A stretch of DNA of 44,617 bases, taken from assembly GCA_018607135.1 (NCBI GenBank), contig JABBCA010000009.1, positions 1 through 44,617 on the forward strand, read 5' to 3'. A program made the position numbers and the translations under genes. The stretch's first letter is position 1. Each line of letters begins with the position of its first letter. The notes below the pieces were generated by a model, which worked only from the letters and a program-made list of their open reading frames with translations, was not told the DNA's origin and did not search any database. Positions 8,018 through 30,930 of this stretch are shown here, piece after piece. Origin of the DNA: Opitutales bacterium. Lineage in GTDB: Bacteria > Verrucomicrobiota > Verrucomicrobiia > Opitutales > Coraliomargaritaceae.

Positions 8018-9403
<1,386 letters not shown>

Positions 9404-9546: not shown

Positions 9547-9940
<394 letters not shown>

Positions 9941-10014
9941 GCTGAGGAAACTGCGCAACCAAGCCCCGGAGCGCAAGCGGGAAGTTACAACCCAAAAACA
10001 GGCACTACGTTACA

Positions 10015-10047
10015 GCGTCACACCAGCGTCACACTTCAGTCACGAAA
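10015..10047 (+). promoter_or_regulatory. Putative PHO box upstream of the TonB operon
   Basis: Three direct 11-bp units stand in tandem: GCGTCACACCA, GCGTCACACTT and CAGTCACGAAA. CGTTACA lies just upstream (10008-10014). This is the architecture of PhoB sites: a 7-bp CTGTCAC-like unit plus a 4-bp spacer, repeated on an 11-bp period. It ends about 60 bp before the start codon at 10108, with an AT-rich candidate -10 (TTAACCAT) at 10050-10057. Confidence 0.6.
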
Positions 10048-10107
10048 GCTTAACCATAGAACACTTTCATTTGAAAACAGCTTCTGATAGCGATCAGCGC
10101 CTAAACT

Positions 10108-10869
<762 letters not shown>

Positions 10870-12324: not shown

Positions 12325-12930
12325 ATGGAAACTCTCGAGAAAATCGTTGATATATGGTTCAGCGGTGGCTGGGTGATGATTCCTTTGGCACTGCTTGCAC
12401 TACTGATCTATTCGACGGGAGTGCAGATGCTGCTCTTCCTGCGAAAAGGAAACATACAGCTAGGCCGTGAATCCGACTGGGTCACTTGGATCTACAACCC
12501 AGCACTCGCCCAAGGCCGTGCAGGGGAAATTATCCGTTACACTCAAGAAAACGTCAGTGCCTCCAAGCATGTTCGGAATCGCTTCGAAGAAGTGCGCCAA
12601 TCCATTCTCACCAATATTGAGCGTCGCCTACGCTTCCTCAACATGCTCGTCGCCACAGCGCCCCTGATGGGTCTGCTCGGCACCGTGATCGGTATGCTCG
12701 GAACCTTCGCTGCGATCTCAAGCGGCGGCGGTGCTGAAACGGCAGCCATGGTTGCAGACGGCATTTCCGAAGCACTCATCACCACACAAACCGGCCTATT
12801 CGTCGCACTCCCAGGAATCTTCCTCGTGCTGATCATCCGCCGTAAAATGCATGCCATCGAAGCAGCACTTGCGCGCATCGAAGCCATCAGCCTGACCAAA
12901 CTCGATCTAGACGAAGACATCAACTTCTAG
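12325..12930 (+). CDS. exbB: ExbB proton channel subunit
   Basis: This 201-aa inner-membrane protein has three membrane segments: [22 protein letters not shown] (about 19-40), [22 protein letters not shown] (about 108-130) and [16 protein letters not shown] (about 155-172). The [14 protein letters not shown] block is the MotA/TolQ/ExbB signature. The length is that of the short ExbB2 class. With ExbD it forms the proton channel that powers TonB. It lies between the TtpC-like gene (33 bp upstream) and exbD (20 bp downstream), so the set is one transcription unit. Confidence 0.93.
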
Positions 12931-12950: not shown

Positions 12951-13349
12951 ATGCGCCGCAATCTAACAGCAGACGACCGTGACGATGTAGAGATTAACCT
13001 CTCTCCAATGATCGATATGGTCTTCATCCTTCTCATCTTCTTTATCGTCACCACAGTCTTCGTCGAAGAAACGGGTGTTGAAGTCAACAAGCCCGAAGCC
13101 GCCGCAGCCGTGCAGCTCGAGAAAAACAGCATCCTCATCGCGGTGACTGCCGACAACAAAGTCATCTATGGCGGCCGCGACATCGGCATCACAGGCGTCG
13201 CTCCCATCGTAAAGCGTCTCACGCTTAAAGAAGACGTGCCCGTCATCATCCAAGCCGACGCTGGTGCCAATCACGGTGTCTTCGCACGTGTTTATGGTGA
13301 AGCAAAGCTTGCGGGCGCTAAGGCCATCAACTTCTCCACCAAGCGATAA
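12951..13349 (+). CDS. exbD: ExbD proton channel subunit
   Basis: This 132-aa protein has one N-terminal membrane segment, in [21 protein letters not shown] (about 18-38). The Asp in PMIDMVF is the conserved protonatable residue of ExbD/TolR. A periplasmic domain follows ([28 protein letters not shown]), typical of the family. It partners the ExbB just upstream and probably the TtpC-like protein. Length is normal. Confidence 0.94.
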
Positions 13350-13396: not shown

Positions 13397-14053
13397 ATGT
13401 GCTCACTCTATCATCCGCCACAACAGCGCAAGAGCATGGTTGCCACAGGCATCCTCGTGGGCTTCGGCGTGAGTGCGGTTCTCTTCCTCGCGATTCCACT
13501 CACTCAAATCTTTACCGAGTATAAAAAGGCTCCCGAGGAAATCGACGCATTGGAGATCGCTCCACCGCCACCGCCTCCACCACCTGAAGAACCTCCGCCA
13601 CCACCAGAACCCGAAGAAGAAGAACCACCACCAGAGCTCAACACACCGCCGCCACCGATTTCACTCGACCAAATCGACATGGCACTCAATCCAGGCACCG
13701 GCGGCTCGCTCGCAGGCGATTTCGCGCTCCCTACGTTTGAAGTGGGCGCGAAAGATCTCGGTGGACTCGAAATTTTCGACTTGGACGAAGTAGACTCTCC
13801 GCCACGCCCACGCACATCGCTAAAATTCTCCTACCCTGCACAGGCAAAGAGAAAAGGAATTACCGGCGTCGTTAAATTTGAATACATCGTTACCAGAGAC
13901 GGTCGAGTCGATAAGCTACTCATTAACAGCAGCCCTTCACCAATACTCTCCAAAGCAATCACCGACGTCATGAAAAACGCACGCTTCGAGCCTTCCACGA
14001 TACAAGGGCGCCCCGTTGCAGTCAAAATGACCGGCAACATCCCTTTCAATTAA
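13397..14053 (+). CDS. tonB: TonB energy-transducing protein
   Basis: This 218-aa protein has an N-terminal membrane anchor (about 15-37, VATGILVGFGVSAVLFLAI). Next comes a Pro/Glu-rich periplasm-spanning stretch (about 53-87), much shorter than in E. coli TonB and typical of TonB2 types. The folded C-terminal domain starts with the motif SYPAQAKRKGITGVVKFEYIV and ends with ITDVMKNARFEPSTIQGRPV. It carries energy from the ExbB-ExbD motor to TonB-dependent receptors in the outer membrane; the receptor at 20849-24226 is the obvious local partner. An in-frame ATG at 13436 is a possible alternative start. Confidence 0.93.
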   Translation: MCSLYHPPQQRKSMVATGILVGFGVSAVLFLAIPLTQIFTEYKKAPEEIDALEIAPPPPPPPPEEPPPPPEPEEEEPPPELNTPPPPISLDQIDMALNPGTGGSLAGDFALPTFEVGAKDLGGLEIFDLDEVDSPPRPRTSLKFSYPAQAKRKGITGVVKFEYIVTRDGRVDKLLINSSPSPILSKAITDVMKNARFEPSTIQGRPVAVKMTGNIPFN

Positions 14054-14072: not shown

Positions 14073-15428
14073 ATGAAAAAGATCCTCAGCATCCTTATTG
14101 GCGCATCGCTCGCCACAGTCAGCCTCAACGCCCAAAGTCGCAACCTGCCGACCGACATGTGGAACGACCCAAGCTTTGTTAAAGAGTTCCTTGGCAGCTA
14201 TGGCTTCCTCGCTGGTGCCGAACCAACACTTTCTGAAGAAGAAAAAGAAGGCCTTCGCGCACTCGTCGACCTGATCAAGGTCAGCCCGAAAGCAGCCATC
14301 CAGCAGCTTGAGCCACAAATTGACAGCAGCAGTAGCGCCGCTTTCGACTTCATCCTAGCCAACCTCTACTTCCAAGAGGCCAACCTATCAAAAGCTGAAC
14401 AATACTATACCAGCGCGACGATCAAGCATCCAGACTTTCGACGCGCCTACAAGAACCTCGGTCTCGTCCAGGTCCAACAAGGCAATTTCCCAAAAGCTAT
14501 CAAGACCATCTCCAAGTCAATAGAGCTAGGCGAATCGGACGGCCGCTCCTACGGACTACTCGGCTATGGCTACCTCACACTTGAACGCTACTACCCAGCC
14601 GAAACCGCTTACCGGGAAGCGATTCTCATGCAACCAGACGTTGCCGACTGGAAAGTAGGCCTCGCACGTTGCCTACTAGAAACAGAGCGCTACGCCGATG
14701 CCATCGCCCTCTTTGACACACTCATCAAAGACGATCCAAACAATACCGACTATTGGATTCTTCAGAGCAACGCATACCTAGGCAACGAGCAACCATTACG
14801 CGCAGCAGAGAACATCGAGATCACCCACCGCCTAGGTGGCACAGACCTCACTACCATCTCCCTGCTCGGTGATATCTATATCAACCATGACTCCCCGGAC
14901 CTAGCGCTGATCGCCTATCTCGAAGCTGTTAAAATCGCAGACAACAAAGATATTAAATCACTCGTTCGCGCCGCCGACCTCTTTGCCCGCACAGGTAACT
15001 ACGAGCAAGCCGCAAGCATAGCTGCCGACACTCGTGCTAAATTCAATGAAATCGAAAAAGAGAACGACTTAAAACTACTCACAGTTGAAGCCAAGGTCGC
15101 ACGCGCCCAAGGTGATGACGATGCAGCTGTCGCTACGCTTAATAAAATCGTAGAACGCGACGCACTCAATGGCGAAGCACTCATCGAACTCGCGAATTAC
15201 TATGCTGAAAACGAAGACATGCCCAAAGCAATCAACCGCTTCGAGCAGGCACAAAAAATCGAGTCCTACGAGCGCCAGGCACTCGTCGCACACGCGCAAG
15301 CCCGTGTCCGCAATGGCGAATATAAAGCTGCCATGCCACTCCTACGCCGTGCACTCAGTATCGAATCAGACAACAACCTCGAAGAGTATACACAACGCGT
15401 CGAACGAGCGGCCAAGAACCAAAGCTAA
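14073..15428 (+). CDS. Exported TPR-repeat protein of the TonB operon
   Basis: This 451-aa protein has a signal peptide ([21 protein letters not shown]) and then tetratricopeptide repeats from about residue 90 to the end. Examples are [48 protein letters not shown] and [31 protein letters not shown] proteins close TonB2/TtpC-type operons in Vibrio and Shewanella, and this gene follows tonB by 19 bp. It is probably a periplasmic scaffold that helps TonB-dependent uptake. The exact partner cannot be told from sequence. A strong terminator follows it. Confidence 0.85.
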
Positions 15429-15613: not shown

Positions 15614-16408
15614 ATGTTGCATTCAAAATTGCTCTTCCTTTTAAGCGTTGGCCTTTTATCCATACTCCCTCTTCAACTACAAGCAGGGACGCCCGAAGCA
15701 CTCAGCTTAAACGAAATCCTACAGCGCCACACTGAAGCAGTAGGAGGCCTTTACCACTGGCAAAAAGTAGAAAGCCTAAAATTGATCGGCACCGTAGAAC
15801 GCGACGGCCAGCTCGCCGACATTTGCATCATCAAGAAACGCCCAAATAAAATTCGAGCAACAGTCACATTAATCAACCCCGCACAGCCAAGTCAGACCAT
15901 TCAACTTATACGTGCACACAACGGGACTGAAGCATGGAGTGCTCAACGAGTTAAAGGCATTCAAACCTCTGAAAAGCAAATACTCTCAACTGGAGAAGCA
16001 CAATCACTACTCAATGATGCAAATATTCTCCCTCCCCTGTTAAATGCCACACAAGGAAACACGACCATAACACTCGAAAGCCCACAACAAATTGCAAACA
16101 ACGAAGTCTACACCATCAAGGCCACAGCATCGAAATCCAATGAAGCCACTCTATTCTATGTAGATAGCAAAACATTTCATGTCGTGAAATCGATTCACAC
16201 GACAGAATATTGCAAAACAACGACCCTTTTTGCTGAATACGAAAAAATAAACGAATTATACTTCCCAAGAGTTAGAACCATACAGGACAAAGGCGAAAAC
16301 ACTTCCATCCTAAACGTAAGTTCAATCAATATCGGCGTCGGAATCTATGAAGAGTATTTCAAGGATATTGAGCACGCTAGTTTAAAGGCGCTCTCGTTGG
16401 GAATCTGA
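15614..16408 (+). CDS. Exported protein resembling outer-membrane lipoprotein-sorting (LolA-like) proteins
   Basis: This 264-aa protein has a signal peptide (MLHSKLLFLLSVGLLSILPLQLQA) and then LNEILQRHTEAVGGLYHWQKVESLKLIGTV. That opening (periodic helix, 'x-A-x-G-G-xx-xWxxxxSLKxxG') is common to LolA-like, DUF4292-like beta-barrel-cup proteins. Later segments alternate short beta strands (EATLFYVDSKTFHVVKSIHT; NELYFPRVRTI). It is likely periplasmic and binds something lipid-like, but this is inference. It stands between the TonB operon and two further exported proteins, and has lower GC than the TonB genes. The upstream spacer holds CGTAACAGAG near a possible -10 TAAGTAT (15574-15580), a weak promoter candidate. 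Confidence 0.7.
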   Translation: MLHSKLLFLLSVGLLSILPLQLQAGTPEALSLNEILQRHTEAVGGLYHWQKVESLKLIGTVERDGQLADICIIKKRPNKIRATVTLINPAQPSQTIQLIRAHNGTEAWSAQRVKGIQTSEKQILSTGEAQSLLNDANILPPLLNATQGNTTITLESPQQIANNEVYTIKATASKSNEATLFYVDSKTFHVVKSIHTTEYCKTTTLFAEYEKINELYFPRVRTIQDKGENTSILNVSSINIGVGIYEEYFKDIEHASLKALSLGI

Positions 16409-16484
16409 CAAATGCCTATCCCCACAGTCAAAATTACAGGCGACACTTTTCAACCTAAAGGCACTGCAATCCGCCCCACGCGAA

Positions 16485-16513
16485 CCGTAACATAATCTTC
16501 ACACTACTAAGAT
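16485..16513 (+). promoter_or_regulatory. Putative PHO box and -10 upstream of the exported-protein pair
   Basis: CCGTAAC-ATAA-TCTTCAC-ACTAC is followed at once by TAAGAT (16508-16513). The 7+4+7 spacing and the CGTAAC/TTCAC units parallel the box before pstS, which also precedes a TAAGAT. The site ends 25 bp before the start codon at 16538. Confidence 0.45.
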
Positions 16514-16537
16514 CGCATCAGCGGAGTATACCTATTA

Positions 16538-17290
16538 GTGTCATCACCACTTACAATGGTCACATCTGTCACATCTCAGCGAGTAAGCATCGCATCCATT
16601 ACAACCAGAATTGGGAAAAGAATTATCGCGTTGCTAGCAATGCTTCTTTGCTCGGCTCTGAGCTTAGATGCGTCCCTTATCTTAGAACTTCGCGGCGTGC
16701 TACAAACCCCAAATGGGGAGTGGAAATTCAGCATTCATGAACCAGAATCAGGAAAGGCAGTCTGGCTATGGATGAACCAGGAACGCAATGGCTATCAAGT
16801 CACTAACTACAACCCGAATACTAAAACAATTGATCTACTTATCAACGGGCAGAGCTCTTATTTAGCACTCGTTGATAGCGACAACATCCCGCTGCAGGTT
16901 CTCTTTTCAGCCGACACGCTCACCAACTACAACCGCGAGCTACTCAAACATCATAAACAGCTGATCAAATACTCCAACGCAGCAACAAATAACTCGACAG
17001 CAGGGATAGCGATGCGCAAAGAGGCCTTGAGTAAAGCTAAGCAACTGAAAGATCTACTCATCACCAACCCAAGCGTCCAGAACGTTAATCAACTCATTGG
17101 CGAGCTTGGAGAAAGTATTGATTATGCAGCGTTAATGCAAATAGACCCAGGCCCCATCATAACTTCAAGAAATGAACAAAATACTGCAGGTTGGGGCATC
17201 AAAAAAGATGTCGACCATGAAAAACTTGCGGAAATCTTGGCAACCAATCCTAGCCTAAAAGCCATACATGAAATCGTCCTTGCTGAATAA
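16538..17290 (+). CDS. Unrecognised exported protein
   Basis: The family is not recognised. The 250-aa product has a long N-terminal leader with a hydrophobic core at about residues 30-45 (IIALLAMLLCSALSLDAS) and so should be exported. The mature N-terminal part (LILELRGVLQTPNGEWKFSIHEPESGKAVWLWM) looks like a small beta domain; the second half is helical and charged. The start is a GTG with GGAG 11 nt upstream (16523-16526); a later ATG at 16556 lacks such a site. Its end overlaps the next gene's start by 23 bp, so the two are translationally coupled. A putative PHO box sits before it. Confidence 0.7.
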   Translation: MSSPLTMVTSVTSQRVSIASITTRIGKRIIALLAMLLCSALSLDASLILELRGVLQTPNGEWKFSIHEPESGKAVWLWMNQERNGYQVTNYNPNTKTIDLLINGQSSYLALVDSDNIPLQVLFSADTLTNYNRELLKHHKQLIKYSNAATNNSTAGIAMRKEALSKAKQLKDLLITNPSVQNVNQLIGELGESIDYAALMQIDPGPIITSRNEQNTAGWGIKKDVDHEKLAEILATNPSLKAIHEIVLAE

Positions 17291-18035
17291 ATTTAAACTA
17301 AAATTGAAGGAGCACAGTGTCAGCTGCCTATTTGCAATCATCACTCCGAGCATCTGCATTGCGAGTAACAATGATTGTTTCGCCAATGCTTACGAAAACG
17401 ATAGCAACTGGCCTCAATTTGTAACACCTAGCGAAGCCATAGAGCTCGAAAACGGAACCAGACTTTCAGCATTTATCCCACTGGTCTTATCTCGCGCTTA
17501 TGAAGATGGCACGCTCGTTGTCATCGACCGCGCTGGCGCTACACTCATCGATCACTCAAAAACCAACTTTCTCGAATTAACACAGGATGACTCAACGAGT
17601 GAGCGTGAAGGGCAAAACTTCCATAACTTCATTCAACAGCTAGGACGACGCGTATTCGACCTAAGCCACAGCACAAGCAAAGCTGTCCCGGAAAAAGTCT
17701 TGTCTGAATATAAAAGCTTTTTGGTCATTCGCTGCGCGTTCTCTGTAGAACATATCAGTGAAGTCACAACAGAGCTAGATACGATTACAGAGTGGCTTAA
17801 CTCAAACAATTGCCGCCCCATCATCATTTTCAAAAAGAGTGTCGCAAATGCTCAATTCTACGAATTCCTGGAAACCAACAAGGTAAACTACCCGGTCGTC
17901 GTCCCGATCTTTACACAGGGTTTGACGGAGTTTATCTACACGGATCGGGAGTCCGAGACTCCAATTTTGTGGATCAACAAGAACGGCAAAAAGCTCAACC
18001 AAGCATCTTCGATCCAGGCGATCACTGAGCAATAA
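17268..18035 (+). CDS. Exported protein with a possible thioredoxin-like C-terminal half lacking CXXC
   Basis: The 255-aa protein has an N-terminal hydrophobic segment (VSCLFAIITPSICIAS). The first mature part reads like a short beta domain (AIELENGTRLSAFIP; DGTLVVIDRAGATLIDHSKTNFLEL). The second half has a thioredoxin-fold rhythm: KSFLVIRCAFSVEHISEV, RPIIIFKKSVANAQFYEFL, and the end ETPILWINKNGKKL, where a Pro before a strand and a terminal hairpin match the cis-Pro region of thioredoxin-like proteins. The catalytic CXXC is absent, so a redox role is unlikely if the fold guess is right. It overlaps the preceding gene by 23 bp (shared coding), indicating one functional pair. I cannot name a function. 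Confidence 0.65.
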   Translation: MKSSLLNKFKLKLKEHSVSCLFAIITPSICIASNNDCFANAYENDSNWPQFVTPSEAIELENGTRLSAFIPLVLSRAYEDGTLVVIDRAGATLIDHSKTNFLELTQDDSTSEREGQNFHNFIQQLGRRVFDLSHSTSKAVPEKVLSEYKSFLVIRCAFSVEHISEVTTELDTITEWLNSNNCRPIIIFKKSVANAQFYEFLETNKVNYPVVVPIFTQGLTEFIYTDRESETPILWINKNGKKLNQASSIQAITEQ

Positions 18036-19079: not shown

Positions 19080-20732
19080 TTAGTCGACGCTTACGCCGTC
19101 CCCACGGTCAACAAGGACTCCGCGCTTGTTCAAAGCAGTCCAACCGGTGGTCCAAAGTGTAACCGCATTGCTGTTTTCAAACGCACCCTTGTAGGCAACG
19201 TCAGTGAAGAATGTAGATGTTTCTGTCACACCAAGACCGTTACCAGAACCGTTGTTTGCAGAAGCAAGGTTAACTGGAGGAACTGGGTTTGCACCGTTCG
19301 CAGCGCGACGGTTCATTGATGGGAATGCAGGATCAGTGATTACATTCGCAGCTGTAGGAGCTGCGCCGAATTGCCCCTCGAAAGCAGTTTCCAAGCCAGC
19401 GGTTGGCATCTTAACGATCGCAGCAGCAGTGTTAGCGACAGGAGCGTTATAGATAGCGTTACCACTGAAGAGAACTTCTCCAAGAGCGAAACGTGCTTCG
19501 CCGTCTGCTTCAAACTCGATACCGTCAGAACCGCCGAAACCGTAGAAGATCGAATTGTGATATTCACCACCCCAGTTGTCGCGGATACGTAATACTTCGG
19601 TAGCTTTATTTGGATTACCGATGTATGTCGCATTATAAACGACTGCGTATGTGCGAGGGATAGAGTATGTTGTGCCGAAAGTAGCGTCGTTGCCGTCGCC
19701 AGTTTCACCATCGTGCTCACCACCCTTATCACCATTTACAGTGTCTCCATTCATCAAGCAGAACCAGAACTGGCCCAGACCTGTGAAACCTTCGTCAATA
19801 TCGAAGGCGTCGTCATTGTTGAAGATAGAAGTCAGATACTTTGTGTTTACAGTGCCACCAAACCACTCGTAACCGTCGTCTGCATTACAGTAAACGTCGA
19901 CGTGATCGATCTTTGTGCCGAAACCAACACCACCCATTGTGAGGCCGTTGATTTCGTTCGCAGAACCGATAACCGCACCACCGTGACGGATGGAAACGTA
20001 AGAGAAAATACCGGAGTTGTCATTCGGGTTGAAACCACCAAAAGCGGAGTTTGAACCTTCAGGAAGACCTTCGATGAATTGACGGTTAAGACCACCAGCA
20101 GCAACAACGTCTGTATTAACTGGAGCTTCACCAAGAATGATCACACCACCCCAAAGTTGGCGGAATTCATGATCAACAGTGTCACCACTTTCATCGAGGA
20201 AAGTTGCAATCGCGTCGAACTCGCCTGAACCTGTATAGATAGCTGCAGGAAGTGGGCTGTTCTTAGGATCTGCGTCCAAGAAAGGGCCGTTTTGTAGAAC
20301 ACCGCCACTAACAACTGTTTGTGTAGCAGTTACACGGTCTGCATCATCATCTGTGTCAGATGGAGTGCCGTTATCATCAAGGAAGAAATCGTAACCATCA
20401 GCGATTTGATCGCTATTGGAGTCCAACGCCGCAGTTGTGAAGATGATTGGGTTAGTAGGTGTGCCTTGCGCATTGATGCGGCCTGCGGCAGTAACAACAA
20501 GAGCACCTGGATCAAAGTTACCGATACCGGTAGATGGCTCACCGCGAATGATGGTGCCCGGTTCGATGGTCAATGTGCCACCAGTAACATAGATGATATC
20601 TGTAAGGATATATTCGTTGGATGCAGTCCAAGTAGTGTCAGCAGCGATATTTGCTGTCACTTGAACGATCGCAGCTTGAGCTGCTGTCGCACTAAGACCT
20701 GCAATAAGAGCAGATGAGATCAGTTTTTTCAT
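19080..20732 (-). CDS. Secreted repetitive beta-rich protein found beside TonB-dependent receptors
   Basis: This 550-aa protein has a signal peptide (MKKLISSALIAGLSATAAQA) and then ITANI...WTASNEYILTDIIYVTGGTLTIEPGTIIRGEPSTG, a right-handed beta-helix style opening. Characteristic later blocks are QLWGGVIILGEAPVNT, FNPNDNSGIFSYVSIRHGG, EINGLTMGGVGFGTKIDHVDVY and DDGYEWFGGTVNTKYL. I know this type of protein from Bacteroidota and other Gram-negatives, often next to a TonB-dependent receptor, but no enzyme activity is established to my knowledge. Asp/Asn-rich stretches (DSNSDQIADGYDFFLDDNG) look like calcium-binding loops. There is no sorting signal at the C terminus. The receptor gene is 116 bp upstream on the same strand; the two are probably cotranscribed and act together on one ligand. 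Confidence 0.8.
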   Translation of the reverse strand: MKKLISSALIAGLSATAAQAAIVQVTANIAADTTWTASNEYILTDIIYVTGGTLTIEPGTIIRGEPSTGIGNFDPGALVVTAAGRINAQGTPTNPIIFTTAALDSNSDQIADGYDFFLDDNGTPSDTDDDADRVTATQTVVSGGVLQNGPFLDADPKNSPLPAAIYTGSGEFDAIATFLDESGDTVDHEFRQLWGGVIILGEAPVNTDVVAAGGLNRQFIEGLPEGSNSAFGGFNPNDNSGIFSYVSIRHGGAVIGSANEINGLTMGGVGFGTKIDHVDVYCNADDGYEWFGGTVNTKYLTSIFNNDDAFDIDEGFTGLGQFWFCLMNGDTVNGDKGGEHDGETGDGNDATFGTTYSIPRTYAVVYNATYIGNPNKATEVLRIRDNWGGEYHNSIFYGFGGSDGIEFEADGEARFALGEVLFSGNAIYNAPVANTAAAIVKMPTAGLETAFEGQFGAAPTAANVITDPAFPSMNRRAANGANPVPPVNLASANNGSGNGLGVTETSTFFTDVAYKGAFENSNAVTLWTTGWTALNKRGVLVDRGDGVSVD

Positions 20733-20848
20733 TAGTATATTATAGTTTTGATTAGTGATAGTTGCTTTCGTGGTCGTGAAAGCAGACCAAATAGTAAGCT
20801 AGCTTAGTGAACCTAAAGAGTAGTTTATGTTACACTTTGGTGAATACC

Positions 20849-23800
20849 TCAGAAACTGCGGCTAACTGAGAGCGAATACTTACGACCGACAGTCTCGGCA
20901 GACCTGCGCTCAACTACATCTGCAGCATCACCTCCTGCTCTATTTCGCGCCTCAAAGTAGGTATTGTAACCTTCATCAGTCAGGTTCTTAACCGCTGCAC
21001 TAACTTTCCAGCCGCTCTCAAACTCATGAGAGATAATAAGGTCCAATCGTTCGGTTGAATCACGATACGCATCCAGCGATGATTGAGACCCAATACTCTC
21101 AAGAACCTCAGACGTATTGTTATAAGCAAGCGTCACACGTGTGCCCCACTCCGGATGCTCATAAGTCAAATTAAGATTAATAATCTGTTCTGGTTGCTCA
21201 GTGAGTGGGCGAGTATCATCAAAGCCAGACTCGTCTTCATTAATATTCAGTGCCAGAGCATTTCTTTCCGCCTCGGAGACCCCGGCCTCTGCAACTGTGA
21301 AAGAAATATTACCACCCAGCGTCAAATCACGTAGCACTGGAACTTCCAAGAATGCAAAGCTCTTGCTAAACTCAAACTCTACACCTTCAGCAGTCGCACC
21401 TTCTGCATTGTTAAAAGGTATTTCATCGATGATTTCGTAAGTCGGACGAATAAACTCGATCGGATTCTCGACTTCCTTGTAGAAGACGCTAATCCCAAAC
21501 ATATCATCTGGAACAATCAACGATTCCAATACTGGCAGATCAAAAGAAAATTGATCTGGGTAAAACTCAACACGCAGATCATAGCTGCTAGATGTCGATG
21601 AAGTCAGGAAAGGATTACCAGCCAACAAATCGCCATTTTCGATATCGACGAAAATATCCGAGGTAATCTCACGGAATGATGGACGGTTAATGGTCTCATA
21701 GTATCCCAACTTGAATTGAACACCTTCGGTAGGCTCAATTGTTGCCGTCAACGATGGCAGGTATATGCTATCTTCCAAACTCGATTCAATGGTAGATCCC
21801 GCTGTATTACGAAAACCATCGGGAATCCCAAGAATGGTTGCTTCAGTGCCACGGATGATTGAGTTCGCTGTTGGCGGTATCTGAGCACGGGCAATATCTG
21901 AATCACGAAAGAGCGCTGCCAGCGAATTCGAGGAATCTAAAACCGTCTCACTATCTACAGAAATCACTGAATCCTCAAAGCGATAGCCCCCGACCAACGT
22001 CAACCAATCAAATGGCTCATACTTAGCAGACAGGTAATATGCATCGATATCGCGTTCCGCATCCGATGCACCACGAATCGCACGACTAGCATTATTAAAG
22101 TTACCCACACTGATACCTTCCGAGGTCACTGTTGTTCCGGATGGATTCGTATCAGAACGGTTCTCGAAGTAACTCTGAATCTGAGATTCACGCTCGGCAC
22201 GACGCCACAAACCACCGGAAAAGACAGTAACATTCTCCAAAGGAGACAGCTCTAAATCCAACTTCCTAGAGTCCTCATCTTCCTCAACATAGCGCCATGA
22301 ATTTGAAGACTCAGAGACATTATCCGCGCTGTTTACATTATAGGAAGTGTTATCGCGATCGACAGACTGCGGGACTTCACCTCCTGCGTAATCAGAATAG
22401 CGCAACAATGTAGTAGTATCTCGAAAATCAGGCTCATTTTGCACTGTATTTGCACGCTGCATACTCCAATTGAGTGTCGGCTCAAAAGGCGCTTTCACAA
22501 ATGTGTGCTCACCACCTAGCTGTCCGATACTCAACGAACGCTCAACATAATACAAACGCTCACGGATAAGTAGCAGGTCATCTTCCAGTGTAATATCTTC
22601 ATCAGGATTTACCCCATTAAAGTTACGCTTAACCACCAGATCATTAGTGCGACTGGTGAACGCATTCGCATACATACGATGATTTTCACCAAGAGAATAC
22701 GAGAGCCCAAGTAGTGCTCCCAATTTCACATTCTCCTCAAACTCTTCGTAGTCGAATTGCGCTTCATCACCAAACGGAATGGGTTGGTTAACCGGAACAT
22801 CAACTGTGCCGCCCCCCAGAAAAGGAGGTAGAGTCACTTGCTCAATCACAGTTGTATCCGCTCCTGAAAAATCATAACCTTGGTTATCAGTAGCATCCAA
22901 AACCGCTGAAGTGTCACGCTTATGGTAGCCGGCAAAGACTACTCCCAAACGGCGATCATTCTTAAACTCAAAAGTGTTTCCAATTGCCAAAGAGAACGAG
23001 GTATTCGGACCCGCATCTTTTTCATGAGAGCCCAATTTTCCAGAACGCTCGAAATCAGCGTCTGCCAAGCCCTGTAATGGATCTGTTCGAGGCGCCTGAT
23101 TCAGCGAACCGGCCCCATCCGCCACTAAATAGGAATCACCCTTATCAAAACTCCTAAAGTCTTCGATGGATCCACTATGCCAGCCAGCACCGATGGAAAC
23201 CTTCACAAAGAACTCCTCGGGAAGTTGCTTTGTGATCAAATCAAAATTGGCTGCTGTCGACTCTCCATCGAGATCCGGAGTTGCCGACTTACTGACAATA
23301 ATCGCATCCAGTAGTGACGATGGAAAAATGTCGAATTGCGGCGACTTACGAAATGGATCCGGACTCGGCAAAGGCATACCGTTAAGCGTCGTCACAGTGT
23401 AGCGGTCATTTAAACCACGCACTGAAGGAAATTTGCCATCATTAACCGAAACACCCGCAATTCGTTTCACTGCATCTGCAACATCACTCGCAGCAAACTT
23501 AGAGAAGTCCTCACTGCTAAACACATCCAAGGCACGAGCACTATCAAACTTGATATCCAACTTAGCCATCAAGTCATTCGCTTCCTCCGCGGTAACAGAG
23601 AAATCAATCAATTCATACTCTTTGTCCGACATCTCTGCAGGACGCGGAGGCAATGCGAATGGGAACACACTCACCTCGTCGGCTTTAACTGCATAATCGG
23701 TCACATTCGCCTCGAGGTATCCACTCTTAACAAAAGTCAGTGTGTAGGAACCAGCAGCCGCAGGACCGATACTGTAGCGGCCCTCGGGATCCGTAATCGT

Positions 23801-24226
23801 GCCGATATCTGTGCCCTCCAAGATAATCGCAACACCTTCAACCGGAGCGCCGGTTTCCTTATCCAAAACTTGCCCAGAGACTAATCCGTGATCCGCAGGG
23901 AGCTCACCGCCAAAGGCTTCGACAACACCTTCAGCCTCTTCCAGAGAGCCCTTTAGGACACTTTGTGATGACGCATCGGCTGCGCTCGCTTCGACACTCC
24001 CTACAGCACCAGTCCCCACCTCAGATCCTCCTGCAGCGCCTTGCTCAAGGGCCTTTTCGACCTCTGCAGCTTCCTCAGCCTTCAGCTCTTGTAGTTCCGC
24101 TTCATACTGCTTCGGAATCTCAATTTTAATCGCATGCGCAACTGTCAATAGTGCCACGGAAACAGCCGCCGCTAAAGTTAGTTTTTTGTCTTTTAGAATC
24201 TTCATAGTGTGCATCGGTATAAACAC
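20849..24226 (-). CDS. TonB-dependent outer-membrane receptor with CarboxypepD-reg-like domain
   Basis: This 1125-aa protein takes a scarce substrate across the outer membrane with energy from TonB. In order: signal peptide (LTLAAAVSVALLTVAHA); an Ala/Glu-rich helical stretch (about 35-110); a carboxypeptidase-regulatory-like beta domain (about 117-195, SGQVLDKETGAPVEGVAIILEG); the plug domain (about 240-350, AVKRIAGVSVNDGKFPSVRGLNDRYTVTTLNGMPLP); and a 22-strand-type barrel ending in the aromatic residue of YSLSVSRSF. Substrate cannot be read from sequence; the neighbours (phosphate porin, pst, a TonB operon behind a PHO box) suggest a phosphorus-containing compound. Starts at 24226 (GTG), 24214 and 24205 are all possible; 24205 (MKILKDKK) gives the most ordinary signal peptide. 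Confidence 0.93.
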   Translation of the reverse strand: MFIPMHTMKILKDKKLTLAAAVSVALLTVAHAIKIEIPKQYEAELQELKAEEAAEVEKALEQGAAGGSEVGTGAVGSVEASAADASSQSVLKGSLEEAEGVVEAFGGELPADHGLVSGQVLDKETGAPVEGVAIILEGTDIGTITDPEGRYSIGPAAAGSYTLTFVKSGYLEANVTDYAVKADEVSVFPFALPPRPAEMSDKEYELIDFSVTAEEANDLMAKLDIKFDSARALDVFSSEDFSKFAASDVADAVKRIAGVSVNDGKFPSVRGLNDRYTVTTLNGMPLPSPDPFRKSPQFDIFPSSLLDAIIVSKSATPDLDGESTAANFDLITKQLPEEFFVKVSIGAGWHSGSIEDFRSFDKGDSYLVADGAGSLNQAPRTDPLQGLADADFERSGKLGSHEKDAGPNTSFSLAIGNTFEFKNDRRLGVVFAGYHKRDTSAVLDATDNQGYDFSGADTTVIEQVTLPPFLGGGTVDVPVNQPIPFGDEAQFDYEEFEENVKLGALLGLSYSLGENHRMYANAFTSRTNDLVVKRNFNGVNPDEDITLEDDLLLIRERLYYVERSLSIGQLGGEHTFVKAPFEPTLNWSMQRANTVQNEPDFRDTTTLLRYSDYAGGEVPQSVDRDNTSYNVNSADNVSESSNSWRYVEEDEDSRKLDLELSPLENVTVFSGGLWRRAERESQIQSYFENRSDTNPSGTTVTSEGISVGNFNNASRAIRGASDAERDIDAYYLSAKYEPFDWLTLVGGYRFEDSVISVDSETVLDSSNSLAALFRDSDIARAQIPPTANSIIRGTEATILGIPDGFRNTAGSTIESSLEDSIYLPSLTATIEPTEGVQFKLGYYETINRPSFREITSDIFVDIENGDLLAGNPFLTSSTSSSYDLRVEFYPDQFSFDLPVLESLIVPDDMFGISVFYKEVENPIEFIRPTYEIIDEIPFNNAEGATAEGVEFEFSKSFAFLEVPVLRDLTLGGNISFTVAEAGVSEAERNALALNINEDESGFDDTRPLTEQPEQIINLNLTYEHPEWGTRVTLAYNNTSEVLESIGSQSSLDAYRDSTERLDLIISHEFESGWKVSAAVKNLTDEGYNTYFEARNRAGGDAADVVERRSAETVGRKYSLSVSRSF

Positions 24227-24462: not shown

Positions 24463-25638
24463 CTACCAGAGGATTTGAAGACGAGCACGAAGACCGTCGA
24501 CGTCAACTTCGTCATCAGTATCGCTGTCTGTTTCAGCAAACTCGTAGCCCACCATAAAGCTTACCGCTTTATTGTGGTAGTAGTTCAAACCTACATAGTA
24601 AGAGTCGATTTCGTTGTTGCCACCAGAAACAGTGCCACCACTTGGCGCACGACGGATCAATTCATCCGTATCGATAACAAACATATCAGAGCTGACATGC
24701 GAGTAACGAACCACTGGCTCGAACTTACCAATCTTGTAAGCAACGCGCACAGAGTAACCGTCAACATCCTCGAGCTCATCCAAATCTCCGTGGAAGTATT
24801 CACCCAAAACGTCGAATCCTTCAAACACATAGTTGAAGTAACCTGTATACGCAGTCACGTTGTTGAAATCACCCACTACGCTGTTGTTAGACTGATGCCC
24901 CGCGTCGACCCCGAGCGTGAGACCATTCGATTCCCACTGCAGACGACCGAAGTAAGCGATGTCGTTGTCATTATTAGACGCACCGAGGAGGCGAGAGCCT
25001 TCACCTTGAGCCGCATTGACCAGCGCTGCAGCATAGCTGAATCCAGCACCGAGGTCACCTGTGGCGTGTATACCAGTGTGACGACCCGCGAAATCGATGT
25101 CGTCCGCAAAGAAGCGATTCGCAGCAGAACGCTCAATAGTCTTAATCTTAGAAGAGGAAGTCGTTTCTTGGAAACCAAACGGCACTTTTTGGTAACCGAC
25201 ACTTGCAGTTAAGAGGTCACTAAATTCATAACCTGCGACCGCCTTGTCGATAGAAAGATCGTTTTCAGCGAAATCGACCACCGTTTCAGCGAAAATGCCA
25301 CTTTCATGAGTGGCTTTGGCGCCTAAACGTAAGCGACGGAAGTAGAAGTGATTCGTAGAAGCTTGGTCTACTCCGTTATCATCCATATCCAAGCTATCAT
25401 ACTGGAAGTGCATGCGTCCATTGAAACGAAGCTTTACCGTATCGCTTCCCTTCGCAGAGAAAGTAACGCCTTTGTTTTCCTCCTTAAGTTCAGCAGCAAC
25501 GGCAGTTGCTTCATTAGATGTAAGCACACCCTTCTTTACCAATAGGTCAAGAAGCGCGTCGTTAGATGCTGCAAATGCTGATGTGCCAAGAAGCGCAGCA
25601 GACAGTGCAGATATTTGTGTGAGTTTATTTAGTTTCAT
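24463..25638 (-). CDS. OprO/OprP-type phosphate/polyphosphate porin
   Basis: This 391-aa outer-membrane protein has a signal peptide (MKLNKLTQISALSAALLGTSAFAAS). A short helical lead follows (NDALLDLLVKKGVLTSNEATAVAAELKEE), typical of OprO/OprP relatives, and then alternating amphipathic beta strands (FNGRMHFQYDSLDMDD, FYFRRLRLGAKATHESGIFAETVVDFAEND, EPVVRYSH). It ends in an aromatic residue (RARLQILW). The family forms anion-selective trimeric channels for phosphate or pyrophosphate. It is divergent from pstS across a spacer with a PHO box facing each way, which supports a role in phosphate entry. Anion selectivity itself is not proven by the sequence. Confidence 0.88.
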   Translation of the reverse strand: MKLNKLTQISALSAALLGTSAFAASNDALLDLLVKKGVLTSNEATAVAAELKEENKGVTFSAKGSDTVKLRFNGRMHFQYDSLDMDDNGVDQASTNHFYFRRLRLGAKATHESGIFAETVVDFAENDLSIDKAVAGYEFSDLLTASVGYQKVPFGFQETTSSSKIKTIERSAANRFFADDIDFAGRHTGIHATGDLGAGFSYAAALVNAAQGEGSRLLGASNNDNDIAYFGRLQWESNGLTLGVDAGHQSNNSVVGDFNNVTAYTGYFNYVFEGFDVLGEYFHGDLDELEDVDGYSVRVAYKIGKFEPVVRYSHVSSDMFVIDTDELIRRAPSGGTVSGGNNEIDSYYVGLNYYHNKAVSFMVGYEFAETDSDTDDEVDVDGLRARLQILW

Positions 25639-25696
25639 TGTTTGTTTAATGTTAATTTGTTGCGGAACAACGTCACAAACTTAACCAAGCAGTGTT

Positions 25697-25725
25697 ACAG
25701 AACTGTCGCCTTTTTGTTACAGATG
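25697..25725 (-). promoter_or_regulatory. Putative PHO box of the porin gene
   Basis: Read on the minus strand: CTGTAAC-AAAA, AGGCGAC-AGTT, CTGTAAC-ACTG, three units on an exact 11-bp period. CTGTAAC recurs identically in the box before pstS. A further TGTAACAG lies just upstream (25733-25740). It sits about 60-90 bp from the porin start at 25638, the right distance for a PhoB-activated promoter. Confidence 0.65.
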
Positions 25726-25954
25726 CGTTAACTGTTACATATTAGAGCTATTTGTTTCGTTTACATGTAATTCGCGAAACATTTAGCCTCGAATTGTTTC
25801 AATCGACTTACGGTCACAAAAATCCACCCAAAGTGCCCAAAGGAAAAAATGCGCCAGCCAACATACTAAGAGACTAATAAACACACACTTAAGCAACAAT
25901 TAGGCGATTTCACCTCATCAAATAAATGCCACAAATATCGTTTAATTCACAGTT

Positions 25955-25994
25955 CTGTAACATTTTAGCCACACAGACGAAACAATCGTAAGAT
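25955..25994 (+). promoter_or_regulatory. Putative PHO box and -10 of the pst operon
   Basis: CTGTAAC-ATTT-TAGCCAC-ACAG (25955-25976) follows the 7+4+7 pattern, and TAAGAT (25989-25994) is a good -10 about 16 bp on. Transcription would then start near 26001. This rules out the upstream ATG at 26000 as the pstS start and supports the one at 26069. Confidence 0.6.
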
Positions 25995-26068: not shown

Positions 26069-26896
26069 ATGAAAACACAAACAATCCTACGCACACTGAC
26101 TGCAGCAGCAGCTTTTGCATTCGCAACTCAGGCATTCGCTACTGAAACCATCGTCATCAAGGGCTCCGATACATTGGGCGCAAAAATGGTTCCACAAATC
26201 GCGGAAGCATTCAAGGCTGCTAAAGCTAAAGACGGCGTTGACGTCGCTTTCGAAATCGCAGCTGAAGGCTCCTCAACTGGTGTGGCTTCCGTAATCGACG
26301 GCACTGCTGAAATCGGAATGTCGTCTCGTGACCCGAAAGCTAAGGAAATCGCTAAAGCGAAGACTAATGGTATCGACATGCAAACGATCACAGTGGCTAA
26401 AGATGGCATCGCGATCATCGTTAATGAGTCCAACCCACTCGAAGCAATCAGCCTCGAAGAAATCGAGCTTATCTTCTCTGGCGACGTCACTGACTGGTCT
26501 GGCATTACAGCACAAACCGGCGGCATCTCTGCTTACACACGTAACACATCTTCTGGCACCTACGCTGTTTTCCAAAAGCTAGGCATGAGCTCTCGCGACT
26601 ACGGTAGCGACACTCAAAAGATGGCTGGTAACGAGCAAATCGCTTCTGAAGTCGCGAAGAATCCAAATGGTATCGGCTACGTCGGCCTTGCTTACATCAA
26701 CACACCAGGAGTTAAAGTGCTCCCAGTGAACGGTGCAGCTCCAGACACTGCTGAATACCCGCTCGCTCGCCCACTTTACTACCTAGTAAACAATGGCAAA
26801 GCACTGACACCACTTGCTGACGAGTTCATCAAGTTCAGCCTCAGCGCAGAAGGTCAAGAAATCGTCAAGCGCGTGCACTTCCTTCCTGTTAAGTAA
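26069..26896 (+). CDS. pstS: Periplasmic phosphate-binding protein PstS
   Basis: This 275-aa protein has a signal peptide ([24 protein letters not shown]). The phosphate-binding fold opens with [21 protein letters not shown], where Ser/Asp of the GSDT loop bind phosphate, followed by [26 protein letters not shown] and [17 protein letters not shown], the second ligand loop. It captures inorganic phosphate for the PstCAB transporter. The start at 26069 is preferred over the in-frame ATG at 26000 because only it gives a clean signal peptide and it lies after the likely transcription start. A strong hairpin separates it from pstC, so pstS may be made in excess. Confidence 0.95.
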
Positions 26897-26921
26897 AGAT
26901 TACTTACAACAAGATCCTTTC

Positions 26922-26956
26922 AAAGGGGCCGTTGCCCACAAGCAACGGCCCCTTTT
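26922..26956 (+). terminator. Intra-operon terminator/attenuator between pstS and pstC
   Basis: AAAGGGGCCGTTGC (26922-26935) pairs perfectly with GCAACGGCCCCTTT (26942-26955) around CCACAA. The T-run is only four bases. It lies 25 bp after the pstS stop. Partial termination or 3'-end stabilisation here would keep the binding protein more abundant than the permease. Confidence 0.8.
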
Positions 26957-27044
26957 CATGTATACATATCTTTACTCGTTTGTAACTAGAAAGCGAAAAG
27001 CAGAGGTTGCACAGTGCGACCAAAAAACCAAACTTCGCAGCTTT

Positions 27045-28817
27045 ATGGCAGCTAAATCACCAACCGATCCGAAGAAACCCGCTTTCAGTAAGCGCCGGGC
27101 GCTCTTTTTGGGGCAGGATTCCGACAGCATCATTAAGACGTTTTTCGGCAGTAATGCGATGGTCGCAATTGTTGTCTTGGCACTCATCACCATCTTTCTA
27201 TTTAAAGAAGGTGCAGGATTTGTCGGCCTCTACCATAAAAGCCTAGAAGAATACCGACTTTCAGGCCTCGAATACGTCGACGTGCTTAAAGAAAAGCGAG
27301 AAGACTACACTGAACTCACTCGCTACCTAAACGACGTTAAGGCAGACTGGATCAACGACTTAAAAGATTCTGGAGCGTCTCAATCCGAAATTAACAAGGC
27401 AGTCTTCTCACCAGAAGCAAAAACACTCTTCCTCGGCTACATGCGAGCAGGCTCGGACTTAAAGAAGTTCGTAAAAAAGAAAATGGATGTCGCGATCAAG
27501 ATCCGCGACCAACACACCACCAACGAAAATCTACAAGAAACTGTAGACAATTACTTAGAGCGCATCGCCCTAGTTCGCTCGGAGAAATACAAGTTCTCAC
27601 CAGAAGATCGGGCCAAATACACCTTATTACTCAAAGACATTCCGGAGCTTCAGGACAAAGCCAACGCCATGACCGAAGAAACTCTGCTCAGCGCAGAGGA
27701 CAGTGAGCGTTTCGCAAGCCTACTTGAAGCAGAAGCCAAAAAAATCGCGGCGAGCATCCAGCCAATAGATTTCAGCAAGACCATCGTCGATGTTACCAGC
27801 GAGCAGGATCAATATGCCACGATCCTAGCCGAGCTTGAGGTCAAACTCGAAGAGCTCGCTGCCAGTGCAAATGCAGTCGATTTCAACAATGCGGACATCG
27901 ATGAGCGCATCGAAACCTTTAAAGGCCTAAATACCGTCTTCTTTTCTAATATCGATGCTCACCTTCAGAAACTAGCGAAGTGGGATCAATCTGCAGCCGT
28001 TTCAATTCCACAAGCAATCGGCGCATTCGTCACAGGCAAGGACTGGATCACCGCCAGTGACCAACAAGACTGGTATGGCCTCCTGCCACTCCTCACTGGC
28101 TCACTACTCATTTCCGCGATCGCCCTATTCTTTGCGATTCCATTTGGAGTGGGTGCTGCCATCTACGTCAATCAAATCGCAGGTCCAGCAGAGCGCAACT
28201 TTATCAAACCTTACGTCGAGTTCATCTCCGCTATCCCATCCGTGGTGATCGGTTTCTTCGGCGTCGTGGTATTTGGTGAGGCCATTCGCTTACTCTCACA
28301 ACTGGATGCCCTGCAGTGGGTGCCGTTCTTTCCCGTGCAGGAACGCTTAAACGCATTTACCGCAGGCTGCCTGCTCGCACTCATGGCGATTCCAACCATC
28401 TTCACTCTGGCTGAAGATGCGATCAACAACATCCCTCGTCACTTCAAAGAAGCGTCGCTAGCAATGGGCGCGACTCAGCTACAGACAACGATGCGAGTCA
28501 TCGTGCCTACTGCCCTCTCGGGTATTATTTCGGCCATCATGCTAGGCTTCGGTCGTGTGATTGGCGAGACCATGGTGGTGCTGCTTTGCGCAGGTAACCG
28601 CATTAAAATTCCCGACTTCACCGAAGGCGTCGGCGTGTTCGTCGAACCAGTGCATACCATGACAGGTATCATCGCACAGGAAATGGGTGAAGTGGTGCAT
28701 GGCAGTCTGCACTATCGCGCACTCTTCATGGTCGGTATCGTTCTCTTTTTTATCTCGTTGCTCATTAACTACAGCGCCCAGTGGGTAGTGAAACGCTACA
28801 GCAAACTAGGAGATTAA
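27045..28817 (+). CDS. pstC: Phosphate ABC transporter permease PstC, long form
   Basis: From the preferred ATG at 27045 this is a 590-aa permease, far longer than the 300-aa E. coli PstC. A first membrane segment ([16 protein letters not shown], about residues 38-53) is followed by a roughly 285-residue charged, helical insertion with coiled-coil character. The ordinary permease domain begins near residue 345 ([26 protein letters not shown]) and has the ABC-coupling EAA loop ([25 protein letters not shown]). Long PstC forms are known in Pseudomonas. The reading frame stays open upstream to 26814, inside pstS; ATG 26958 is another option but touches the terminator. With PstA it forms the channel for phosphate. 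Confidence 0.92.
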
Positions 28818-28835
28818 TTCGAAATTTCACGCATC

Positions 28836-30041
28836 ATGTCTGCAAAAAAAGCAACACACGCATTTTCAAAACGCCCGTCTCGCCAAAAGTCGTTTGAGAC
28901 CTTCATCGCGGGCTTCTATCGAGTCGCCACCTATCTAGTTATCATCGCGGCAGGCTACATTTTCATCAATATCGCATGGAATGGCTCTAAAGCAGTCTTC
29001 ACGACCAAAGCTCCATTTATCAACATCGCCTTTCTAACTCAAAAGCCGCAGACACTCCACGTCTATGAGCCCAAGGAAATCTATAACGAGCTGAAGTCTA
29101 TCAACGCTCAGATCGTCAGCACTAAGGCCAAAAGCAAAGCGCTCGGCTCTGGTGAAAAGGAACAAATTGCAATGTTTAAGGCAGATGTTGAAGCGCTCGA
29201 AGAACGTTACGAAATGCTCGATGAAGAGCGCAAGGAAGGGCGCCTCATGTATAGCGACTCTGAATACCGTAAACTAGACGAGAGTCCCTCCGAAGAACTC
29301 TACGCATACAATAATTACGCTTACAGCGGTGGTGGGATTGGCCCCGCAATCGTTGGCACCTGCCTACTCGTTGCTGGATCCATTGCCATTGCACTGACCC
29401 TTGGTGTGTTGTGCGCGGTTTATCTGAGTGAATACAGTCGCCCAGGCAGAATGCTTCAAGCAATTCGCCTCTCGATCATGAATTTGTCGGGTGTGCCTTC
29501 GATTGTGTTCGGCCTCTTCGGGTTTGGCATGTTCGTGCTCTTCTTTGGTTGGGGCGTCTCGATGATTGCTGGCTGGTTTACACTAGCGATCATGGCACTC
29601 CCAGTGATCATCACCGCGAGTGAAGAATCCATGCGCGCGATCCCTAAAGGATTCAGAGAAGGCTCGCTCGCGCTCGGCGCTTCCAAATGGACTTCTATTC
29701 GCACCAACGTATTGCCCTACGCGCTCCCAGGTATCCTCACCTCATCCATTATGGGTATTGCACGGGTTGCGGGTGAAACCGCCCCCATTATGTTTACCGC
29801 AGCCTTTGCGCTCAGAGACCAGCTCCCATGGGAAGGCCTCAAAGAACCCACCGACTTTTTCTTTCAAGGCGTCATGGCACTGCCCTACCACATCTATGTG
29901 GTCAGTGCTAAAATTCCACAAAACGAATACACACGTAATATGCAATACGGTGCCGCATTCGTCTTCTTATTCATCGTAGGTTTCTTCGCCTTAAGTAGCA
30001 TCGTCTTACGCGTAAAAATCCGCAAAAAATACAAGTGGTAA
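28836..30041 (+). CDS. pstA: Phosphate ABC transporter permease PstA
   Basis: This 401-aa permease has a first membrane segment ([21 protein letters not shown], about 28-48) and then a 110-residue charged helical insertion (about 60-165), echoing the longer one in PstC. The core domain follows from about residue 170 ([32 protein letters not shown]). The EAA coupling loop [26 protein letters not shown]-type sequence (seen as [18 protein letters not shown]) contacts PstB. It follows pstC by 18 bp. The paired insertions in the two permeases may pack against each other or against PhoU-type regulators; that is inference. Confidence 0.93.
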
Positions 30042-30083
30042 GCCCACCATCGATCATCGATTTACACAGAGAATAGTTCACTC

Positions 30084-30884: not shown

Positions 30885-30930
30885 TCCCTCATCTCAGTAA
30901 TTCCAGTATTCAAAGCATCCATAAATCACC

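What the first reader, a model, noticed from the sequence alone, without database searches (positions are those of the whole stretch)
10015..10047. Tandem 11-bp repeats (PHO box) in front of the TonB operon
Three consecutive units GCGTCACACCA, GCGTCACACTT, CAGTCACGAAA are on an exact 11-bp period with a conserved GTCAC core. This is the hallmark of PhoB binding and is unexpected before exbB/exbD/tonB genes, which are usually iron-regulated by Fur.
Basis: partly seen in the sequence, partly recalled or inferred. Interest (0 to 1): 0.68.

Follow-up and report, generated by a model that had tools for sequence, protein, structure and literature searches.

The report
Phosphate-starvation switch before TonB operon
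The repeats are very probably landing sites for the bacterium's phosphate-starvation regulator in front of a set of genes that powers uptake through the outer membrane, which suggests that this bacterium and its relatives pull in phosphorus actively rather than by diffusion alone.

Summary
Confirmed and extended. Window 10017-10043 carries GTCAC three times on an exact 11-bp period, the only exact triple in the 3.53-Mb genome; a fourth unit (TTAAC, 10050) follows. A three-unit matrix from pstS promoters of nine other genomes ranks the site third in the window, after the porin and pstS promoters; in 400 kb of the same genome one position scores as high, upstream of phoB. An E. coli matrix scores it weakly. 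The box recurs before the orthologous operon in relatives that share its neighbourhood, and is missing before most unlinked copies, including this genome's second TonB operon. Promoters of the operon in a second family show the 11-bp period too. The operon is a six-gene TtpB-TtpC-ExbB-ExbD-TonB-TtpD system, Fur-regulated in Vibrio; here no Fur box stands out. It sits with a TonB receptor, a secreted 550-aa protein, an OprP-type porin and pstSCAB-phoU. The receptor/550-aa pair recurs in other phyla, near pst genes in 19 of 78 loci. Best reading: PhoB-activated, TonB-powered phosphorus uptake; binding, regulation and cargo are inferred. PhoB control of TonB genes has precedent; this arrangement is a new variant.

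The parts
10015..10047 (+). three tandem 11-bp units with GTCAC core (PHO box)
10048..10058 (+). fourth unit GCTTAACCATA; TTAAC in register, and present in the 16 promoters aligned, which were chosen for carrying it
10059..10107 (+). leader to the ATG, partly conserved (CTTTC.TTT.AAA..GCTTTCTG); no sigma-70 promoter matching both hexamers in 9930-10130
10108..10869 (+). DUF3450 / TtpB-like first gene
   Evidence: Pfam PF11932 E 4.2e-31; name from PMC6957404
10889..12292 (+). TtpC-like long MotA/TolQ/ExbB protein
12325..12930 (+). ExbB
12951..13349 (+). ExbD
13397..14053 (+). TonB
14073..15428 (+). TPR protein, TtpD-like
16487..16513 (+). PHO-box-like site (18.1 bits) before the 16538 gene; a like site precedes that gene in the same-genus genome G001
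15614..18035 (+). LolA-like gene (below Pfam's cut-off) and two genes of unknown function
19080..20732 (-). 550-aa protein, apparently secreted (signal peptide judged by eye; called X550 here), paired with the receptor in many phyla
20804..20844 (-). weaker PHO-box-like site upstream of the 550-aa protein (10.4 bits with the four-unit matrix; no background position as high)
20849..24226 (-). TonB-dependent receptor with CarboxypepD_reg domain
24463..25638 (-). Porin_O_P (phosphate-selective porin family)
25691..25731 (-). PHO box of the porin promoter (40.2 bits)
25946..25986 (+). PHO box of the pstS promoter (38.9 bits; own genome held out of training)
26069..31569 (+). pstS, pstC, pstA, pstB, phoU
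   Evidence: gene names from Pfam families and order

Best explanation
10015-10058 is a four-unit PHO box. When phosphate is scarce, phosphorylated PhoB (its gene is next to phoR on contig C100) binds the 11-bp direct repeats as tandem dimers. It then recruits RNA polymerase to a promoter without a good -35 hexamer and switches on ttpB-ttpC-exbB-exbD-tonB-ttpD. The product is a TonB energiser dedicated to the neighbouring TonB-dependent receptor, which with the secreted 550-aa protein, the OprP-type porin and PstSCAB forms one phosphorus-scavenging locus. Shown by computation: the box, its likeness to pst boxes, its conservation, and the gene linkage. Inferred: PhoB binding, activation, and that the receptor carries a phosphorus compound.
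For: Three-unit matrix from nine other genomes' pstS promoters ranks the site third in the window, after porin and own pstS. Score of 12 or more: 7 of 48 distinct DUF3450 upstreams against 0 of 318 background ORF upstreams. Chains of 2 or more core units at 11 bp: 8 of 8 operons with the receptor/550-aa/porin/pst neighbourhood, 1 of 11 without it, 88 of 5000 random windows; 3 or more: 5 of 8, 0 of 11, 0 of 5000 (15 further copies whose neighbourhood was not visible or not fetched: 6 of 15 and 1 of 15). Second family: identity excess at shift 11 (z 6.2, next highest 2.0), 17 core pairs at 11 bp against 0.22 expected in 10 promoters; receptor follows the operon in 10 of 10 loci and the 550-aa protein in 9 of 10, the tenth locus ending first. 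phoB and phoR adjacent; PhoB candidate 41% identical to E. coli PhoB. Fur-site likeness at background (11 of 19). Receptor/550-aa loci of other genomes: pst or phoU in 19 of 78 (no control set counted); chains of 3 or more upstream of 11 of 64 receptors against 7 of 493 other genes.
Against: The E. coli matrix gives only 4.8 bits (rank 55 of 89,192 positions). With the four-unit pst matrix the site has 9.5 bits and is fifth in the window, behind a 13.4-bit hit inside an unrelated gene (34445). The 41-position profile search of the genome, which scored 150 of 450 candidates, returned pstS, the porin and one partial hit, not this site. In G032 one spacing is irregular and the score is 6.9. The f1-trained matrix does not fit the second family (G061: 6.1, no site of 11 or more in its locus). 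Family-f1 copy G010 without the neighbourhood has a chain of 2, and this genome's second copy an off-register 11.1-bit match. In other phyla the chain test finds boxes at only 1 of 11 pstS, 1 of 73 X550 and 0 of 43 other pst/phoU genes, so it is a poor detector of Pho promoters there. The nine training sites were picked from 27 pst upstreams because they show the box; the 16 aligned promoters were picked after seeing TTAAC. Neither PhoB nor PhoR reaches the NCBIfam cut-off (228 against 296.2; 270.7 against 334.2). No expression or binding data exist here.
Confidence: 0.88

Rival explanations
1. The repeats bind another OmpR-family regulator (these also use roughly 10-11-bp direct repeats, recalled), not PhoB.
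For: The genome has two further regulators matching the PhoB model over its full length (C62 and C64), and the E. coli PhoB matrix fits weakly.
Against: The same matrix describes the pstS and porin promoters and a site upstream of phoB in this genome, and the box goes with the copies that have the receptor/porin/pst neighbourhood.
Confidence: 0.08
2. Ordinary iron control: the operon is a Fur-regulated TonB2-type system and the repeats are incidental.
For: TonB2 of Vibrio vulnificus, with the same six genes, has a Fur site and is iron-regulated (PMC6957404, passages); three Fur-family genes are present.
Against: Best Fur-consensus match is 11 of 19, as in random windows; the repeats are conserved; the neighbours are phosphate genes.
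Confidence: 0.03
3. Chance tandem repeat.
For: Two-unit matches with one mismatch are not above chance in the window; degenerate triples are not enriched in the genome.
Against: Exact triple unique in the genome; conserved in orthologues and missing from most unlinked copies; separate 11-bp signal in a second family.
Confidence: 0.01

Closest known systems
Pho regulon / PHO box bound by PhoB (E. coli, Pseudomonas, Caulobacter)
   Same: 11-bp direct repeats with a TGTCA/GTCAC-like core, in front of pst and a phosphate porin; phoBR present
   Different: Four units here; cores vary as GTCAC, GTAAC, GCCAC, GAAAC, TTAAC; poor fit to the E. coli matrix
Vibrio TonB2/TonB3 systems (TtpB-TtpC-ExbB-ExbD-TonB-TtpD)
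   Same: Same six kinds of gene; ttpB first and ttpD last in both (PMC6957404, passages)
   Different: TonB2 is iron/Fur-regulated and takes up siderophores; here a PHO box and phosphate neighbours. TonB3 is reported not to be iron-regulated and not to transport iron compounds.
P. aeruginosa PUMA3 locus: phdA-pdtB-exbB2D2-tonB4 under PhoB and sigma VreI (PMC4971064, passages)
   Same: PhoB binds a pho box in front of a transcript carrying ExbB, ExbD and TonB
   Different: Needs an ECF sigma factor; no Ttp genes and no pst or porin linkage in the passages read
Flavobacterium phosphate-induced TonB-dependent transporters and exoproteins (PMC8115612, passages)
   Same: TonB transporters and secreted proteins induced by phosphate depletion, some encoded side by side
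   Different: Bacteroidetes, partly SusCD-type complexes; 'exbB' and 'pho box' do not occur in that text; homology of its exoproteins to the 550-aa protein not tested

Membership tests
PHO box / Pho regulon | direct repeats on an 11-bp period upstream of the gene | tested here: met
PHO box / Pho regulon | match to a matrix from the lineage's own pst promoters | tested here: met
   three-unit matrix: 18.6 bits, third in the window; four-unit matrix: fifth; profile search of the genome: missed
PHO box / Pho regulon | match to the E. coli PHO-box matrix | tested here: inconclusive
   4.82 bits, rank 55 of 89,192
PHO box / Pho regulon | phoB-phoR pair in the genome | tested here: met
   adjacent at C100; best hits, though below NCBIfam cut-offs
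PHO box / Pho regulon | PhoB binding and phosphate-dependent transcription | not testable with these tools
   needs a gel shift and expression data
TtpB/C/D-type TonB system (TonB2/3-like) | genes for TtpB (DUF3450), TtpC, ExbB, ExbD, TonB and TtpD (TPR) in one operon | tested here: met
   relatives
TtpB/C/D-type TonB system (TonB2/3-like) | Fur control (TonB2 subtype only) | tested here: not met
   best Fur-consensus match 11 of 19, background level; consensus from proteobacteria
Phosphorus-specific TonB-dependent uptake | receptor transports a phosphorus compound | not testable with these tools
   only linkage and promoter evidence

The most novel reading that the evidence does not exclude
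The receptor plus 550-aa secreted protein is a cross-phylum, phosphate-controlled module for active, TonB-powered import of a phosphorus compound through the outer membrane. In Opitutales-type Verrucomicrobiota it has its own PhoB-controlled TtpB/C/D-type TonB energiser, split from a second, non-phosphate copy; the same could explain TonB3-like systems whose cargo is unknown.
Probability: 0.42. Interest if true: 0.75.

Novelty: new variant of a known kind. Interest (0 to 1): 0.58.

Why it matters
Phosphate is usually thought to cross the outer membrane passively through porins, with active uptake only at the inner membrane (general knowledge, recalled). A whole TonB energising operon inside the Pho regulon, conserved with a receptor and a secreted protein, points to active outer-membrane phosphorus uptake. 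It also gives a testable cargo class for TonB systems that do not respond to iron.

Tried and rejected
E. coli matrix as the main test: weak, kept as evidence against; its nine sites were picked by likeness to the recalled consensus in promoters of seven recalled Pho genes (yjdN looked at, not used). Profile search of the genome: missed the site. Fourier test of column conservation: no 11-bp signal, conservation rises towards TTAAC; replaced by within-sequence shift identity. A count of any 5-mer triple gave about 300 at each spacing tried, mostly N runs; redone without N. First promoter alignment had some loci in the wrong orientation and a helper script printed nothing useful; both replaced. 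AlphaFold models of the 550-aa protein: mean pLDDT 38 and 31, not used, no fold search made. PDB sequence search for it: 0 hits. In one search identical upstreams, upstreams under 140 nt and partial hits were dropped before the count. In one search G030 is counted as unlinked although its contig ends inside the operon; without it the count is 1 of 10. G004 and G011 promoters, and those of G022, G028, G033 and G035, are identical or nearly so, so counts overstate independence. Six of the seven 'other' genes with chains lie in the same loci as receptor hits and may share the site. Promoters of DUF3450 operons in other families of the order (f4, f5, f8, f9, f21) score 7.4 or less; G086 and G093 (L159, L160) were fetched but their promoters not scored.

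Full report
WHAT IS THERE. The sequence is as described. GTCAC begins at 10017, 10028 and 10039, and TTAAC at 10050, all 11 bp apart, ending 53 bases before the ATG of the first gene. In the whole genome (3,530,185 bases, 106 contigs) the exact triple occurs only here; 0.006 are expected by base composition, with the caveat that the core was chosen after seeing it. An exact 5-mer of three or more letter types repeated three times at 11 bp occurs in 1 cluster in 400 kb of the genome. Pairs with one mismatch are not above chance in the window, nor are triples with up to two mismatches in the genome (4 against 8 for the reversed pattern).

SURROUNDINGS. On the other side of the intergenic region lies a class A RNase P RNA gene, 9549-9934 minus. 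Downstream are DUF3450, a long MotA/TolQ/ExbB protein, ExbB, ExbD, TonB and a TPR protein. These are the six genes of the Vibrio TonB2/TonB3 systems, where the DUF3450 and TPR proteins are called TtpB and TtpD and TonB2's are needed for siderophore uptake (PMC6957404; abstract and passages read). Then come a LolA-like gene, two unknown genes, a PEP-CTERM protein, a 550-aa protein, a TonB-dependent receptor with a CarboxypepD_reg domain, a Porin_O_P porin, and pstS, pstC, pstA, pstB and phoU. The setting is thus a phosphate locus. phoB and phoR lie together on contig C100; the PhoB candidate is 41% identical to E. coli PhoB. The phylum is inferred: an f20 genome of the same order (G153) shares contig length and gene order with a record titled Verrucomicrobiia (L150, L233).

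MATRIX TEST. Upstreams of pstS were taken from relatives. Of 27 aligned, nine with a clear box were used (near-duplicate L074 and 17 weaker ones dropped; own genome held out). The four-unit 41-bp matrix puts the porin promoter (40.2 bits) and the own pstS promoter (38.9) on top of the window; third is a hit inside an unrelated gene (34445, 13.4), fourth the site before the 550-aa gene (10.4), fifth this site (9.5). The three-unit 27-bp matrix gives 31.4 for the porin, 25.0 for pstS and 18.6 for 10017-10043, third in the window; a site at 16487, before an unknown gene of the cluster, has 18.1. In 400 kb of the same genome, both strands, one position reaches 18.6, and it lies between phoB and its upstream neighbour, oriented away from phoB. 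Against the reading: a matrix of nine E. coli sites gives only 4.8 bits, rank 55 of 89,192, and a genome search with the 41-position profile (150 of 450 candidates scored) returned only porin, pstS and one partial hit.

CONSERVATION AND CONTRAST. DUF3450 copies were found in 54 of 74 genomes searched, the window's own among them. Among 48 distinct upstreams, 7 score 12 or more, against 0 of 318 background ORF upstreams; 10 of 48 against 3 of 318 reach 10. One of the ten is the window genome's second TonB operon (C94, 11.1 bits, without 11-bp cores). Sixteen promoters, chosen because they carry TTAAC, line up without gaps; most read as variants of GTCAC-GTCAC-GTCAC-TTAAC, while G005, G008 and G061 keep little beyond the last one or two units. 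In eight of them identity at shift 11 was reached by 0 of 1000 shuffles. Gene maps separate operons with the receptor/550-aa/porin/pst neighbourhood from those without. pstS itself is on the same contig in 5 of the 8 linked genomes (G000, G001, G004, G011, G032; in G004 and G011 a distant pstS 15-16 kb away). Chains of two or more cores at 11 bp occur in 8 of 8 linked, 1 of 11 unlinked and 88 of 5000 random windows; three or more in 5 of 8, 0 of 11 and 0 of 5000. Fifteen more copies whose neighbourhood was cut off or not fetched have 6 of 15 and 1 of 15. The window genome and two same-genus relatives hold one copy of each kind.

A SECOND FAMILY. In family f20 of the same order, ten genomes had a match at E 1e-45 or better among 376 genomes searched. 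One locus of each was examined. The operon is followed by the receptor in 10 of 10 and by the 550-aa protein in 9 of 10; the tenth locus ends first. Their promoters show excess identity at shift 11 (z 6.2; next highest 2.0 at 19) and 17 core pairs at 11 bp against 0.22 expected, with smaller peaks at 18 and 19 bp (6 and 5 pairs). Several of these promoters are closely related, so this is fewer than ten independent events, and the f1 pst matrix does not pick them out (G061: 6.1).

WIDER MODULE. A receptor is present in 69 of 78, and pst or phoU genes in 19 of 78, two or more of them in 15; among loci of 16 kb or more 15 of 45. No control set was counted for this linkage. Chains of three or more 11-bp cores, on either strand, lie upstream of 11 of 64 receptors against 7 of 493 other genes (Fisher p 3e-7; an earlier count was 11 of 55 against 0.5% of 2200 random windows). 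In the same call they lie upstream of only 1 of 73 550-aa genes, 1 of 11 pstS, 1 of 2 porins and 0 of 43 other pst/phoU genes. Related loci inflate the receptor count. In some the unit is TTAACA, which resembles the Bacillus PhoP unit (recalled).

ALTERNATIVES. Fur: three Fur-family genes exist, but the best Fur-consensus match in this promoter is 11 of 19, as in random windows. Another OmpR-family regulator cannot be excluded without binding data, but the shared pst motif and the linkage favour PhoB. No sigma-70 promoter with both hexamers is found in 9930-10130, as expected if the activator replaces the -35 element.

LITERATURE. Search listings and passages only. PhoB binds the phdA promoter of P. 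aeruginosa, whose transcript includes exbB2D2 and tonB4 (PMC4971064). Caulobacter PhoB controls TonB receptors (PMC11208175). Flavobacterium induces TonB transporters and exoproteins on phosphate depletion (PMC8115612). A paper on phosphate and a fucoidan-degrading verrucomicrobium mentions TonB receptors and pst genes; 'PhoB' and 'Pho regulon' do not occur in its main text (PMC12872454). Searches for DUF3450 with TonB, for PhoB or Pho terms with TonB, ExbB or ExbD, for TtpC/TonB2 with PhoB terms and for Verrucomicrobia with Pho regulon and TonB listed no paper whose title or shown abstract describes a PHO box before a TtpB-type TonB operon; only open-licence papers are held, and most listed papers were not opened.

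VERDICT. A PHO box by the comparative tests, though not by the E. coli matrix or the strictest profile; ordinary as a kind of site, in front of an operon where my searches found none described. The more interesting result is the conserved locus: a TonB energiser apparently specialised for phosphorus uptake. Regulation and cargo remain to be shown.

Noticed in passing
9549-9934 (-): Bacterial class A RNase P RNA gene (228.9 bits), divergent to the TonB operon and sharing its intergenic region.
   Followed up: partly
19080-20732 (-); loci L161-L238: A 550-aa family without a Pfam match at E 0.001, next to a TonB receptor in 69 of 78 loci across phyla and near pst genes in 19; tandem copies in several loci.
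   Followed up: partly
L035 (genome contig C94, 14017 onwards): A second complete TtpB-TtpC-ExbB-ExbD-TonB-TtpD operon in the same genome, without an 11-bp box or the receptor/porin/pst neighbours.
   Followed up: yes
L129:8570-8610 (genome contig C100): PHO-box-like site between phoB and its upstream neighbour, oriented away from phoB; reversed sites also lie near the receptor in some relatives (L095, L098, L100, L101).
   Followed up: partly
10059-10097: Parts of the leader between the box and the start codon (CTTTC.TTT.AAA..GCTTTCTG) are about as conserved as the box; it may hold the -10/start region or a further element.
   Followed up: no
8392-8449: Perfect hexamer array (CTGGCT, 9.7 copies) inside the minus-strand ORF 8018-9403; a possible slippage site.
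   Followed up: no
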